A stretch of DNA of 64,000 nt from a virus, in the IMG/VR virus record IMGVR_UViG_3300015242_000020, positions 1 through 64,000 of that record; one strand, written 5' to 3'. The notes below the pieces were generated by a model. That model made no database searches and was not told the DNA's origin. It was given only the letters and a program-made list of their open reading frames with translations. The position numbers and the translations under genes were made by a program. Below are positions 4,522 to 57,580 of this stretch, one piece after another (position 1 is the stretch's first letter; each line of letters opens with the position of its first letter).

Positions 4522-4652
4522 TAGCCTGGTCCTCAGCGTCGGAACGGATCCCCGAAGCCCTTCGACAAGGCTTCACTACAGGGGGTCCGTTTTGATTTGT
4601 CCTGGGGGACTCTAGACCTTCGATCTTTCCGGTGCCAAGTCCTCCTCTCCTG

Positions 4653-4788
4653 ATGGTTCACTTTCCGGCCAACTAGGGATGTGAGTACTCGGCTCGCGCG
4701 TATGCATGTGCGCCCGCGCGAGGACAAGTCCTGGTCTAAGTACTTACTCCTTCCCTAGAGAACCCCTGTGGTACGGAAAATGAACCAT
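4653..4788. repeat. 136-bp nested quasi-palindrome
   Basis: Four nested inverted-repeat pairs share one centre: 4653-4667 with 4774-4788 (14 of 15 positions), 4673-4679 with 4752-4758 (7 of 7), 4681-4689 with 4739-4747 (8 of 9) and 4693-4700 with 4715-4722 (8 of 8). It lies in the longest non-coding stretch of the left half, between a putative DNA-binding-protein gene and a tRNA. It could be a replication origin, a recombination site or a structured RNA. Three copies of AGTCCT sit in or next to it (near 4636, 4725 and 4791). Confidence 0.6.
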
Positions 4789-4854
4789 CGAGTCCTAGGT
4801 AAGATCATCTCCCGCACGGCACGTGCAGAGCCCCGGAACGCGTCCGGGAAGTGC

Positions 4855-12570: not shown

Positions 12571-14149
12571 CCAGCCGGGCCCGCTCGATGTAGCGACGCC
12601 GGATCTCAGCAGAGATCGCAGTCACGGCCGGGTCGATCAGCGTGTCGGCATCCACAGACAGCTCAGTGACCAGCTGGCGAGCCAGCTGGTGCTCCAGGGA
12701 TGCCTCATCGGGAGTCCCTCGGGCCACCTGCACCTGGATGTCCACCGAGTCATGGATGGAGTTGATCCGGTGGATCCGGTCCGAGCGCTGCTCGTGAATG
12801 GCCCACACCCCGGTGGGCTCGTAATGCAGCAGAGCATGTCCGCAGCCGAGGTTCAAACCTCTGCAGCCGGCGTCGGAGGACAGGAACAGCTGTCGATCGC
12901 CGCGTTTGAATGACTCGATGGCCTCGGTCTTCTGCCGCTGCCCGAGCGCGCCGTGGTTGATCGCCACGGTGAAACCATCCCGGGCCAGGGCATCAGCCAG
13001 CTCGGGGAGGACCGACTGGCCGAAAAAGGTGAAGATCACACCCTGCTCCGGCCCGAGCCGGGCCGCCCAGTCACACATCGCCTCAGTCTTGGCCGAGGGG
13101 ATCGCCTTCAGGCCCTCCGCGCCGACCTCCCAGACGATGCGCTGAGCCAGCTGTCCCTGGGAGCGCAGGATCGAGGCCGGGTGTCCGGCGATCTGTCGCA
13201 GCGTGCCGTAGGCCCGCTCGACCTGGGCGTCGTCTTCGATATCGACCAGGGAGGCCACCGTGGTCAGGAAGTCCTGGTGCCGGGGATGTAGGTCGATGAA
13301 GGTGGGAGCCTCCTCGACCTTGATCGGAAACTGATCCCGGATATCGGGGTCGCTCTTGCGCTTGCGGATCACCAGGTGGCTGACTAGCTCGGTCAGCGTC
13401 GGGATGTCTTTCTCGATCCGGGTGCTCGGCTCGATGTTCTTCCACTTGATCGGCACGCCGTAGTCGTCCTTGAGCAGCACGTAGCAGGCCTCGAACTGCG
13501 CCACCGTGGGCATGTGCTCGGGATCCATCAGCCGGGCGATGTTGAAGAAGTTATCCGGTCCGGTCTCTACCGGGGTCCCGGTCAGCCCGAGCACTCGCAA
13601 GTGGTCGGGTTTGCGCAGCTGCTTCAGGGCGTAGTCGTGGGCCTTGTACCGGCTGGAGGAGCGGTTACGCAGCTTCTGCACCTCGTCGTAGACCACCAGG
13701 GTGCGCTGCGGCACCAGATACTGCAGGAGTGGTCCGACGGCGAGCACTTTGCGGGTCTTCGGCTTGATCGTGCAGAAGTCCTTGGCCGCCGTCTCATAGG
13801 TGGTGATCAGCACTTCGGGGGGATCGGCCAGCACCTTGGCCCGCTGCTGGCCGAGGTAGACCTTGGCGGAGAGCCGGGTGAACTGGGCGAAGTCTTGGCG
13901 CCACTCGGCTAGCTTGATCGACTCACATACGATCAACACCCGGTCGATCAGGTCGTCTTCGAACAGCATTGCGGCCGTCGCCATGGCCAGATGGCTCTTA
14001 CCAGTGCCGAGATCAAAGATCGGCAGCATGGCCTTGGCGTAGTAGATCGAGGCCACCGCATCGGCCTGAAACGGATACAGGGTGGACAGATAGAGCGAGC
14101 CCCGGGCCTGCGGTGGAAGATCCAACAGATGGCCCGGGGTCTCGGTCAT
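12563..14149 (-). CDS. SNF2-like superfamily 2 DNA helicase
   Basis: A 528-residue protein with the full SF2 motif set: Walker A DLGTGKS (around Lys51), motif Ia VLIVCESIKLAEW, DEVQ box at about 155-158, LTGTP motif III at about 189-193, motif V SDAGCRGLNL and motif VI HEQRSDRIHR (Gln454, Arg455, Arg458, Arg461). The DExQ/H box and the QRSDRIHRINS form are typical of SNF2/SWI2-type ATP-dependent DNA translocases, which phages use in replication, recombination or displacement of DNA-bound proteins. Length is normal for compact phage members. It is the centre of a short leftward early-type group. Confidence 0.85.
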   Translation of the reverse strand: MTETPGHLLDLPPQARGSLYLSTLYPFQADAVASIYYAKAMLPIFDLGTGKSHLAMATAAMLFEDDLIDRVLIVCESIKLAEWRQDFAQFTRLSAKVYLGQQRAKVLADPPEVLITTYETAAKDFCTIKPKTRKVLAVGPLLQYLVPQRTLVVYDEVQKLRNRSSSRYKAHDYALKQLRKPDHLRVLGLTGTPVETGPDNFFNIARLMDPEHMPTVAQFEACYVLLKDDYGVPIKWKNIEPSTRIEKDIPTLTELVSHLVIRKRKSDPDIRDQFPIKVEEAPTFIDLHPRHQDFLTTVASLVDIEDDAQVERAYGTLRQIAGHPASILRSQGQLAQRIVWEVGAEGLKAIPSAKTEAMCDWAARLGPEQGVIFTFFGQSVLPELADALARDGFTVAINHGALGQRQKTEAIESFKRGDRQLFLSSDAGCRGLNLGCGHALLHYEPTGVWAIHEQRSDRIHRINSIHDSVDIQVQVARGTPDEASLEHQLARQLVTELSVDADTLIDPAVTAISAEIRRRYIERARLGG

Positions 14150-53264: not shown

Positions 53265-53272
53265 TTGGGTTT

Positions 53273-53304
53273 GAGAGGGGGCCCAGTTACCCGGGCCCCC
53301 TCTC
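53273..53304. other. 12-bp hairpin between tRNA-Asn and tRNA-Met
   Basis: GAGAGGGGGCCC at 53273-53284 pairs with GGGCCCCCTCTC at 53293-53304 around an eight-base loop. It fills the gap between the two tRNA genes. Confidence 0.6.
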
Positions 53305-53308
53305 ACCG

Positions 53309-54012: not shown

Positions 54013-54044
54013 GACGACCGAGTAGTCGTCGCGCAAGTCTTGCG

Positions 54045-54117
54045 AGCAGGTGACGGGATTCGAACCCGCAACAGCGACCTTGGAAGGGTCGTACACGTCC
54101 AGTTGTGATTCACCTGC
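54045..54117 (-). tRNA. tRNA-Gly (TCC)
   Basis: Acceptor GCAGGTG/CACCTGC; stem CGACC/GGTCG with loop CTTCCAA; T arm GCGGG-TTCGAAT-CCCGT. Confidence 0.85.
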
Positions 54118-54120
54118 ATG

Positions 54121-54242
54121 GAGTACGCCCCTGGCTATCCTCGCGAGATGGACGTCAGCGGAGACTGAAAAGCCTAGTAAACACCGGAATCTCTCCGGCT
54201 TACTCTTCGGGCCCCGTACGGCCATAGCCAGGGACGTACCTC
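54121..54242 (-). ncRNA. Stem-closed structured RNA between tRNA-Gly and tRNA-His
   Basis: About 120 nt closed by a 16-bp stem: 54123-54138 with 54224-54239. The single non-Watson-Crick position is a G-U pair in the leftward transcript but an A-C mismatch in the other, which fits a leftward RNA. Inner hairpins include a GTAA-CCGG/CCGG-TTAC stem (54177-54202). The element sits 1-3 bases from the flanking tRNAs. No reading frame or T-loop motif was found. I know no matching RNA family. Confidence 0.55.
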
Positions 54243-54243
54243 G

Positions 54244-54316
54244 GGTGACGGACGGGGCTCGAACCCGCAGCCTCCGGATTCACAATCCGGCGTCCTACCA
54301 ATCGGACTTCCGTCAC
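54244..54316 (-). tRNA. tRNA-His (GTG)
   Basis: Acceptor GTGACGG/CCGTCAC; stem CCGGA/TCCGG with loop TTGTGAA; T arm GCGGG-TTCGAGC-CCCGT; discriminator C, as required for His. Confidence 0.9.
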
Positions 54317-54513: not shown

Positions 54514-55011
54514 TTAGTTGCCCTTCCATCGCTGTCCATGGACGATCCTGTGAATTTGCGGTCGACCAACACCAAATCGATCCGAGAGATCGCACTGGCG
54601 TTGACCATCAGCGAACAGACTGCGGATCTCGACCACCTGATTCCACGTGAGCTTGGCCTCATGATGTTGTTCGCCAGGACGACCGCGTTTCCGATCGCGA
54701 CCACGCTCGATCATGTCTCGGATATTGTCCGCCTGCGTTCCTCCGAGCCAATGAGCGGGATTCTGGCACGGAGGCACGTCACAAGTGTGACGCACTACCC
54801 GAGGAGGCATCATGTCGTACTCCAGTAGCCATCCTGCTCGGTGCGCGGTCCAGATCAAGTGCTTGCCTGTGTCGTCGTTGCCGACATAGATCGAGCCGTG
54901 GCCGAATGGGTGCGTGGCCGCCGTCCATAACCAGCAATCATCAGGACCACGGCGCACGTACTTCTCTTCGTACCTTTCTCGCAATGTGAGGCTGACTTGC
55001 ACCCTATGCAC
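54514..55011 (-). CDS. HNH endonuclease (homing-type)
   Basis: A 165-residue protein. VVRHTCDVPPCQNPAHWLGGTQADNIRDMIERGR is a typical HNH_3 zinc/catalytic region, preceded by the WTAHRAGWLLEYD strand-helix and followed by a helix-turn-helix DNA-binding tail (VVEIRSLFADGQRQCDLSDRFGVGRPQIHRIVHG). Such free-standing homing nucleases insert among conserved genes, here between RtcB and the tRNAs. The start is a GTG at 55011 overlapping the RtcB stop by eight bases. Expressed on the same leftward transcript. Confidence 0.85.
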   Translation of the reverse strand: MHRVQVSLTLRERYEEKYVRRGPDDCWLWTAATHPFGHGSIYVGNDDTGKHLIWTAHRAGWLLEYDMMPPRVVRHTCDVPPCQNPAHWLGGTQADNIRDMIERGRDRKRGRPGEQHHEAKLTWNQVVEIRSLFADGQRQCDLSDRFGVGRPQIHRIVHGQRWKGN

Positions 55012-56194
55012 CCTTTACGTTCAGAAATTGCCGCAGCTCGTGCCGGATCTCGACCATGTCCGCCGCATCCGCCATCACGGTGTCGATCGGCTTGTACGCG
55101 TCCGGGTGCTCATCCAGGAATGCATCGGACTCACCCCAGACCACGCCGGCCGCCGCCATCTTGGCGTTCAGGTCCTCCCGGGTAAACAGCGACTTGGCCG
55201 CCGACCGGGAGTGTGCCCGACCAGCACCATGTGGAGCGGAGTTCAGCGAGTCGCTGTTGCCCTTACCGATGACCACGTAGCTCCTGGTACCCATCGAGCC
55301 CGGAATGAGCCCAGCGACGCCCTCAGCCGCGTTGATGGCGCCCTTGCGGGATACCCACACCGGCTTGCCGCCCCAGACCTCGGCCACGGTGTAGTTGTGG
55401 TGGCAGGAGATCTCCTCCAGTCGCTGCACCGACTTGCCCGAGTCGGTCCAGACGCCCAGGCAGTCCAGCACCCGGTCCATCATCTCGGCTCGGTTCAGCC
55501 GCGCCCACAGCTGCGCCCAGTTCAGCGCCTCCATGTACCGGACGAACCCCGGTGTGCCCTCCTCCAGGTAGGCCAGGTCCTTGTTCGGCAGCGGAGTCTT
55601 GTCGTGCTCGCACTGGGCCTTGGCGATCTTGATGTGCTGCTGGGCCAGTTTGTTGCCCACGCCTCGGGATCCGGAGTGCAGGAAGGCCCAGACCCGGTCC
55701 TCTTCGTCGTAGGACAGCTCGATGAAGTGGTTTCCGGAGCCCAGCGAGCCCAGCTGTGCTCGCCAGTCCACGCCGGTGTTGTCTGCCTGCTCGACACTCC
55801 AGGTCAGCTCCAGCTCGAAAATCCGGCGCTTGGCCGTGGTCGAAATGGTCTGGTTGCGGGCGCCGGCCGAGAGCGGTACCGCCGAGGCGATCGAGCGATG
55901 CAGGTCCCGCAGGCTCTTCCCGTCCTGCACCAGATAATCAATGGTTGTCTTGGTGTACGGGGTGAGCACTGCATCCATTCCGCAGCCAATATCCACTCCG
56001 ACCGCCGAGGGCATGATCGCCTGGTAGGTAGGAATGACCGAGCCGACCGTGGCGCCCAGGCCGAGATGGGCATCCGGCATCAATGCCAGGTGCGGATGGA
56101 TGAACGGCATGCTGGCGGTCTCATACGCCTGAGCCAGGGTCTTGGGATCCAGGATCGATGCGTAGTTGACCAGCTTGTCGGTGAGGCGCTCCAC
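55004..56194 (-). CDS. rtcB: RtcB-type RNA ligase
   Basis: A 396-residue protein with all RtcB motifs: PDAHLG near 40, VGVDIGCGM with Asp68 and Cys71, GSGNHF with His156, HSGSRG with His173, CHHNY with His265/266, and SAPHGAGR with His322, the GMP-accepting His. RtcB joins 2',3'-cyclic phosphate and 5'-OH RNA ends in a GTP- and Mn-dependent reaction; such ends arise when anticodon nucleases cut tRNAs. Its location inside the tRNA array is strong context for tRNA repair. A dyad I site lies 27 bases upstream of the ATG. Full length for the compact form. Confidence 0.93.
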   Translation of the reverse strand: MERLTDKLVNYASILDPKTLAQAYETASMPFIHPHLALMPDAHLGLGATVGSVIPTYQAIMPSAVGVDIGCGMDAVLTPYTKTTIDYLVQDGKSLRDLHRSIASAVPLSAGARNQTISTTAKRRIFELELTWSVEQADNTGVDWRAQLGSLGSGNHFIELSYDEEDRVWAFLHSGSRGVGNKLAQQHIKIAKAQCEHDKTPLPNKDLAYLEEGTPGFVRYMEALNWAQLWARLNRAEMMDRVLDCLGVWTDSGKSVQRLEEISCHHNYTVAEVWGGKPVWVSRKGAINAAEGVAGLIPGSMGTRSYVVIGKGNSDSLNSAPHGAGRAHSRSAAKSLFTREDLNAKMAAAGVVWGESDAFLDEHPDAYKPIDTVMADAADMVEIRHELRQFLNVKGA

Positions 56195-56422: not shown

Positions 56423-56507
56423 AAGAGGGTAACGGAGTCGAACCGTCGGGACGCACTGCCCGGTCTGGGTTTCGAAGCCAGTCGCCTACCACTAAGCACT
56501 ACCCTCC
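56423..56507 (-). tRNA. tRNA-Ser (CGA)
   Basis: Class II. Acceptor GGAGGGT/ACCCTCT; loop TTCGAAA; anticodon stem CTGGC/CCCAG with a C-C mismatch at 31-39; T arm GACGG-TTCGACT-CCGTT; discriminator T rather than the usual G. Confidence 0.7.
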
Positions 56508-57065: not shown

Positions 57066-57072
57066 TTAGTGT

Positions 57073-57109
57073 CCTTCCGAGAAAGCCCGTACATGGAGAA
57101 CTCGGAAGG
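57073..57109 (-). ncRNA. 9-bp stem-closed spacer between tRNA-Asp and tRNA-Lys(CTT)
   Basis: CCTTCCGAG (57073-57081) pairs with CTCGGAAGG (57101-57109), filling almost the whole gap (57066-57113). Confidence 0.45.
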
Positions 57110-57113
57110 AACG

Positions 57114-57191: not shown

Positions 57192-57275
57192 GACGGGGGA
57201 TTGGGATGTACTGGGAATCGAACCCAGCACCGAAGGGCCTCTCCGGCCGTATCCACACGTAATCCCACCCCCGTC
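57192..57275 (-). ncRNA. tRNA-like stem-closed RNA lacking an anticodon loop
   Basis: A 14-bp stem with a two-base bulge closes the element: 57192-57199 and 57202-57207 pair with 57262-57275. Inside is a perfect T arm (CTGGG-TTCGATT-CCCAG, 57211-57227) and a GGCC/GGCC hairpin, but no seven-base loop with U33. It could be a decayed tRNA (tRNA-Pro is the one identity missing from the set) or a distinct tRNA-like RNA. Confidence 0.45.
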
Positions 57276-57482: not shown

Positions 57483-57484
57483 TT

Positions 57485-57580
57485 ATAGCCCCAACCCGGC
57501 GCAAGGTCACCATTATGGATCGGTCGGTTACGTGATCCGCCTCGCTATTCGCGGTCCGACAACCGTCCGGGTTGGGGTAT
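57485..57580 (-). ncRNA. Stem-closed structured RNA between tRNA-Lys(TTT) and tRNA-Glu
   Basis: 96 nt closed by an 11-bp perfect stem (57489-57499 with 57567-57577) extended by ATA/TAT after one bulged base. Inner hairpins CGC/GCG and GGATC/GATCC are present. It lies two bases from one tRNA and one base from the other, so it fills the slot completely. No reading frame. Confidence 0.55.

What the first reader, a model, noticed from the sequence alone, without database searches (positions are those of the whole stretch)
54121..54242. Structured RNA filling the slot between tRNA-His and tRNA-Gly
A 16-bp closing stem joins both ends of a 120-nt segment, with internal hairpins. The one imperfect pair is G-U only in the leftward transcript, the direction of the tRNAs. 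The element almost abuts both tRNAs, so it would be released as a separate RNA by tRNA 5' and 3' processing. I recognise no family.
Basis: partly seen in the sequence, partly recalled or inferred. Interest (0 to 1): 0.75.

Follow-up and report, generated by a model that had tools for sequence, protein, structure and literature searches.

The report
Stem-closed spacer between phage tRNA genes
Between two tRNA genes of an unnamed actinobacterial-type phage sits a 125-base spacer whose two ends zip into a 16-17 base-pair stem, stopping just short of each tRNA; many other spacers in related phages are built the same way, which points to a role in cutting tRNAs out of a long transcript rather than to one special RNA.

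Summary
The stem is real. In the leftward transcript (the tRNA direction) 54224-54239 pairs with 54123-54138 (16 bp, one G-U; 17 bp with the next G-U), 2 nt after tRNA-His and 4 nt before tRNA-Gly. No shuffle of the spacer reproduces it, but the 85 nt inside fold no better than chance, so the internal hairpins are not evidence. Rfam, ARAGORN, BLAST and nhmmer find no family and no homologue.

The main new result is that the slot is not unique. Closing stems of at least 8 bp, starting 0-3 nt after one tRNA and ending 4-7 nt before the next, occur in 4 of 10 spacers of this array (0.09 expected), 13 of 49 in cluster C mycobacteriophages (0.32 expected), and 15 of 86 in relatives fetched after the rule was set (0.48 expected). 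They are longer in the tRNA sense than antisense (20 versus 7). The element's 4-nt leader, CCAU, matches the array-wide leader (Y-C-A-U).

I conclude it is a self-closed pre-tRNA spacer, with linkers limited by tRNA end processing and probably released as a ~125-nt RNA. A trans-acting RNA remains possible. It is not a Y RNA: those motifs occur in Ro-encoding relatives, and Ro is absent here.

The parts
54243..54316 (-). tRNA-His(GTG), upstream neighbour; CCA not encoded
   Evidence: ARAGORN; Rfam; sequence
54224..54240 (-). 5' arm of closing stem (GGUACGUCCCUGGCUAU), starts 2 nt after tRNA-His
   Evidence: pair probability about 1.0 over most of the stem
54139..54223 (-). inner 85 nt; folds no better than shuffles (z -0.1)
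54122..54138 (-). 3' arm of closing stem (AUAGCCAGGGGCGUACU)
54118..54121 (-). CCAU, 4-nt single-stranded 5' leader of tRNA-Gly; matches the array-wide YCAU leader consensus
54044..54117 (-). tRNA-Gly(TCC), downstream neighbour
   Evidence: ARAGORN; Rfam
53265..53307 (-). sister spacer closed by a 15-bp stem (arms 53291-53305 / 53272-53286), offsets 2 and 7
   Evidence: p 0.001, z -5.5
57066..57112 (-). sister spacer closed by a 10-bp stem, offsets 2 and 6
   Evidence: p 0.016
57483..57580 (-). sister spacer closed by an 11-bp stem, offsets 3 and 6
   Evidence: p 0.004
55004..56194 (-). RtcB RNA ligase gene embedded in the tRNA array (context)
   Evidence: Pfam PF01139 E 3e-105; phage RtcB matches

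Best explanation
The slot is a self-closed spacer unit of a polycistronic pre-tRNA. Its ends zip into a 16-17 bp helix, so the only single-stranded RNA left between tRNA-His and tRNA-Gly is 2 nt of trailer and a 4-nt leader (CCAU). RNase P cuts at the 5' end of tRNA-Gly, and a 3' processing nuclease (tRNase Z type, since CCA is not encoded) cuts behind tRNA-His. This releases a ~125-nt RNA with base-paired ends. The helix keeps spacer sequence from pairing with the tRNAs and holds the linkers at the size the processing enzymes need. The inner sequence is largely free to vary. Shown: the stem, its position, recurrence of the same geometry in many spacers of related arrays with unrelated sequences, sense-strand bias and the leader consensus. 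Inferred: co-transcription, the enzymes, release and the insulating role.
For: Closing stem not reached in 1000 shuffles. Near-end geometry (5' offset 0-3, 3' offset 4-7, at least 8 bp): 4/10 here against 0.09 expected; 13/49 in cluster C phages against 0.32; replicated in relatives at 15/86 against 0.48 (largest shuffle 3). Control offset boxes are enriched far less. Offsets peak at 0-3 and 4-7 over all 211 spacers. Stems are longer in the tRNA sense than antisense in 20 cases against 7, as RNA-level selection predicts. Most spacers share a Y-C-A-U leader and this one has CCAU. The inner part folds at chance level, and two sister spacers are bare 43-47 nt hairpins, so the shared feature is the stem and not the inside.
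Against: No expression data. Lukilu and Tonenili are related and share some spacers, so counts are not fully independent. Most spacers (175 of 211) lack such a stem, so it is not needed for tRNA processing in general. The enzyme-footprint reasoning for the 4-7 nt leader is from general knowledge and was not tested here. In Ro-encoding relatives some stem-closed spacers are recognisable Y-RNA-like RNAs, so the geometry also fits genuine ncRNAs.
Confidence: 0.55

Rival explanations
1. It is a distinct trans-acting small RNA (like T4 rnaC/rnaD or PAK_P3 sRNA2) that uses the tRNA slot for its maturation; the inner 85 nt carry the function.
For: Length ~125 nt equals that of Y-RNA-like spacers in Ro-encoding relatives (119-126 nt in Lukilu and Magritte). 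RNA-seq shows an abundant RNA between two tRNAs in PAK_P3 (PMC4933390). T4 rnaC/rnaD are annotated small stable RNAs beside tRNA-Arg. Good Y-RNA-like spacers can also have inner z near -0.5, so a weak inner fold does not exclude function.
Against: Inner fold z -0.1. No conserved homologue in phages, viral contigs or relatives. Sister spacers in the same array have the same geometry with no room for a domain.
Confidence: 0.25
2. It is a Y RNA (YrlA type), partner of a Ro/TROVE protein, with a tRNA-mimic domain.
For: Same kind of slot and size as the Y-RNA-like spacers of Lukilu, Tonenili, Phabba, Myrna and Magritte. RtcB lies next door, and rsr-yrl-rtcBA operons exist (PMC7790460).
Against: No YrlA match in the slot at E up to 10. 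No TROVE gene in the 135.6 kb record. No CGGUUAUC box in the array and no T-loop GGUUCRA in the spacer. Apart from one antisense near-match in L023, the [A/G]GG(C/U)(C/U)GA...GGUUAUC motif was seen only in phages with TROVE (6 of the 8 records with TROVE). Stem-closed spacers also occur in phages where no TROVE was found.
Confidence: 0.03
3. It is a decayed tRNA gene or an inserted palindromic element (MITE-like).
For: tRNA-Pro is missing from the ARAGORN list of this window. An acceptor stem would sit at similar offsets.
Against: No tRNA signal at Rfam E up to 10. The stem is 16-17 bp, not 7. Only one copy in the genome. Stems of different spacers share no obvious sequence, so no single element family.
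Confidence: 0.07
4. Chance palindrome in GC-rich sequence, no function.
For: A 16-bp stem spanning 90-150 nt turns up in about 1 of 10 shuffled single-strand windows, and the finding was picked by eye.
Against: Its ends fall at 2 and 4 nt from the tRNAs. At least 10 bp at such offsets is expected 0.00 times in 10 spacers and was seen 4 times. The geometry replicated in later-fetched relatives.
Confidence: 0.1

Closest known systems
Y-RNA-like spacers in tRNA arrays of Ro-encoding actinophages (YrlA family, RF02553)
   Same: 119-126 nt units in tRNA-to-tRNA slots, closed by a stem 0-3 nt after one tRNA and mostly 4-7 nt before the next
   Different: No Ro gene, no GGYCGA/CGGUUAUC box and no T-loop mimic here; the stem is longer, 16-17 bp against 8-11
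T4 species 1 and 2 RNAs (rnaC, rnaD)
   Same: Small RNAs of 139 and 119 nt encoded in a phage tRNA cluster, function unknown (PMC4933390)
   Different: Their own folds show no 16-bp closing stem; no sequence relation found
PAK_P3 sRNA2
   Same: About 100-130 nt RNA between two phage tRNAs, abundant by RNA-seq (PMC4933390; L058 26345-26478)
   Different: It lies in a 204-nt spacer, carries a T-arm-like GGTTCGATTCC and has no end-to-end stem of this kind
Simple hairpin spacers of the same and related arrays (53265-53307; Lukilu L041 12319-12377; L071 11964-12008)
   Same: Closing stem of 15-18 bp at about the same offsets from the tRNAs
   Different: 43-59 nt in all, with little or no inner sequence

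Membership tests
YrlA / bacterial Y RNA | match to the RF02553 covariance model | tested here: not met
   No match in the slot at E up to 10
YrlA / bacterial Y RNA | Ro60/TROVE protein encoded in the genome | tested here: not met
   PF05731 absent from the 135,564-base record, which may be incomplete; present in all seven named tRNA-array phages tested
YrlA / bacterial Y RNA | conserved box and tRNA-mimic T-loop next to the closing stem | tested here: not met
   No GGTTATC in the array; no GGTTCRA in the spacer sequence
tRNA gene | cloverleaf with T-loop and anticodon arm | tested here: not met
   ARAGORN and Rfam at E up to 10 find none in 54118-54242
Stem-closed pre-tRNA spacer (geometry defined here) | helix of at least 8 bp starting 0-3 nt after the upstream tRNA and ending 4-7 nt before the downstream tRNA | tested here: met
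   17 bp at offsets 2 and 4
Stem-closed pre-tRNA spacer (geometry defined here) | conservation of pairing by compensatory change | tested here: inconclusive
   No homologue of this spacer found. For another slot (Met to Ala, Phabba against Myrna) the outer stem pairs differ between the two phages and remain paired (read, not counted formally)
Phage tRNA-cluster small stable RNA (T4 rnaC/D type) | accumulates as a discrete RNA in infection | not testable with these tools
   No transcriptome for this phage
Intrinsic terminator | stem followed by a U tract | tested here: not met
   The stem is followed by CCAU and tRNA-Gly; no terminator-like site on the minus strand at this position

The most novel reading that the evidence does not exclude
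Stem-closed spacers are a widespread, sequence-independent class of RNA units in actinophage tRNA arrays. Selection fixes only their closing stem and its distance to the neighbouring tRNA ends. They are cut out by the tRNA enzymes as stable RNAs with paired ends that can be filled with new functions; Y RNAs in Ro-encoding phages would be one such filling.
Probability: 0.3. Interest if true: 0.7.

Novelty: new variant of a known kind. Interest (0 to 1): 0.45.

Why it matters
Phage tRNA arrays are usually read as lists of tRNAs with meaningless gaps. If the gaps obey a geometric rule set by tRNA end processing, arrays become a natural experiment on how polycistronic pre-tRNAs are folded and cut. 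The rule also tells annotators where small stable RNAs (Y RNAs, T4 species 1/2-like RNAs) are likely to sit. It can be tested in laboratory M. smegmatis phages that carry the same kind of stem.

Tried and rejected
Y RNA: rejected by Rfam, absence of the TROVE gene, and motif tests. Exact 5'-arm matches in 12 viral contigs: no tRNA nearby and no complementary arm in the sequence that follows, taken as chance. UCCA after the stem as a tRNA-like CCA end: dropped, because CAU/YCAU is the leader of most tRNAs in these arrays. Hidden or intron-bearing tRNA: relaxed ARAGORN gives thousands of spurious calls and Rfam gives none. Relatives by RtcB gave arrays only in L002 and L023; single-sequence MCP scans gave none; the MCP alignment gave the arrays used for replication. 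tRNA-Gly and tRNA-His pattern scans: no hits. One BLAST of the element ran with a wrong query after a file-name clash and was redone; the window row had the same fault and was also redone. A Y-RNA covariance model was not built because the alignments misaligned the 3' arms.

Full report
What is there. The window is bases 1-64000 of a 135,564-base virus record. Its major capsid protein is 52-56% identical to those of cluster C mycobacteriophages. A tRNA array on the minus strand runs from 58029 to 53191 and contains an RtcB ligase gene. Between tRNA-His and tRNA-Gly lies a 125-nt spacer. Its ends pair over 16 bp with one G-U, or 17 bp counting the next G-U, leaving 2 nt and 4 nt to the tRNAs.

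Is it more than chance. The minus strand folds at -59.2 kcal/mol, z about -4.2, against z -2.4 for the plus strand. None of 1000 shuffles of the spacer has so long a closing stem. Without regard to position it is less striking: two such stems occur on the minus strand of the window and 2 in 20 shuffled single-strand windows. The inner 85 nt fold at chance level (z -0.1), so only the closing stem carries signal.

No family, no homologue. Rfam gives nothing in the slot even at E up to 10, and phage BLAST gives nothing. Exact arm matches in viral contigs lack tRNAs and the partner arm. The tRNA-anchored scans are empty, and BLAST and nhmmer against all fetched loci find no related spacer. The genome holds a single copy.

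A general geometry. In this array three more spacers are closed by 10-15 bp stems at offsets 2-3 and 6-7. I then defined a box: a helix of at least 8 bp whose 5' arm starts 0-3 nt after the upstream tRNA and whose 3' arm ends 4-7 nt before the downstream tRNA. Observed against expected from dinucleotide shuffles: 4/10 against 0.09 in the window, 13/49 against 0.32 in Lukilu, Tonenili, Phabba and Myrna, and 3/49 against 0.27 in GiJojo, A3Wally and Magritte. The box was drawn after seeing the offsets, so these counts are partly circular. After that I found relatives by an MCP alignment, two of them with arrays in the flank, and fetched arrays from three of their records. With L071 these gave 15/86 against 0.48, with much weaker enrichment in shifted boxes. 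L071 had been inspected before the pooled count; without it the count is 13/69. L071 carries a 45-nt spacer closed by 16 bp at offsets 0 and 4, in an array downstream of the capsid gene.

RNA level and direction. Over 211 spacers, near-end stems of at least 8 bp number 36 in the tRNA sense and 20 antisense. Where the two differ, the sense stem is longer in 20 cases and the antisense in 7. Most spacers share a leader ending Y-C-A-U before the tRNA, and the element has CCAU.

Relation to known RNAs. In Ro-encoding phages some spacers look like Y RNAs: closing stem, [A/G]GG(C/U)(C/U)GA, a CGGUUAUC-like box, and a T-loop GGUUCRA. The box motif was seen in Lukilu, Tonenili, Phabba, Myrna, A3Wally and Magritte, all with a TROVE gene; GiJojo and L002 have TROVE without the pattern hit, and L023, without TROVE, has one antisense near-match. 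The window lacks both the motif and the gene. Phage Y RNAs have been proposed before (Chen et al. 2014, as cited in PMC12282133). RNAs between phage tRNAs are documented for PAK_P3 (PMC4933390), and T4 rnaC/rnaD lie beside tRNA-Arg.

Mechanism. The best reading is a self-closed spacer in a polycistronic pre-tRNA. The stem sequesters the spacer and leaves just enough single strand for cleavage at the 3' end of tRNA-His and the 5' end of tRNA-Gly. The released RNA would have paired ends and could be stable. That bacterial RNase P contacts roughly nucleotides -4 to -8 of the leader is general knowledge and was not tested here; it would explain the 4-7 nt limit. Whether the released RNA does anything is open. 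Variation of spacer length and stem at equivalent junctions of related arrays (Lukilu, Tonenili, Phabba, Myrna; G019 against G022) suggests that individual stems come and go while the geometry is kept.

Limits. No expression data; related phages inflate counts; most spacers have no such stem; literature search was limited to open papers, and I found none that describes this offset rule.

Noticed in passing
window 4651-4790: A second strongly folded stretch in a ~750-nt gap without a clear gene, 270 nt before tRNA-Cys: end-to-end 16-bp stem (G-U on minus, C-A on plus), 140 nt, z -6.0 (+) and -6.4 (-), no Rfam or phage BLAST match. Statistically stronger than the finding itself; function unknown.
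   Followed up: partly
window 57192-57275 (-): A tRNA-like unit with a good T-arm (CTGGGTTCGATTCCCAG) but a 5-nt anticodon loop, wrapped in an extra 8-bp stem GACGGGGG/CCCCCGTC; Rfam gives only a weak tmRNA match.
   Followed up: partly
window 56424-56507 (-): Probable tRNA-Ser(CGA) missed by ARAGORN; Rfam matches the tRNA-Sec model at 32.9 bits, below cut-off.
   Followed up: partly
L041 9153-9278, 10082-10200, 44495; L046 4612-4737, 5701-5821; L047 11372-11492, 13352, 13566-13687; L048 12690-12828, 14672, 14891; L051 11972-12096, 15751, 16038: Candidate phage Y RNAs in tRNA arrays and near Ro genes, most with the shared motif [A/G]GG(C/U)(C/U)GA...GGUUAUC (L041 10082-10200 and L046 5701-5821 are variants). 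Those in L041 were not reported by the Rfam YrlA model at gathering threshold, so phage versions seem under-detected.
   Followed up: partly
L058 26345-26478 (PAK_P3 sRNA2): The RNA-seq-defined small RNA between two tRNAs contains a T-arm-like GGAGGTTCGATTCCTC, suggesting a tRNA-mimic RNA.
   Followed up: no
tRNA arrays of 15 loci: Most spacers end in a Y-C-A-U leader just before the tRNA, a possible shared RNase P leader signal.
   Followed up: partly
L002 5926-5962: An abiF RNA (RF03085, 51 bits) sits directly upstream of the RtcB gene in a phage contig that also has a large tRNA array.
   Followed up: no
window 54514-55011 (-): ORF between tRNA-Trp and RtcB with an HNH-like sequence pattern by eye; no Pfam match. 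HNH genes sit inside tRNA arrays of several related phages.
   Followed up: no
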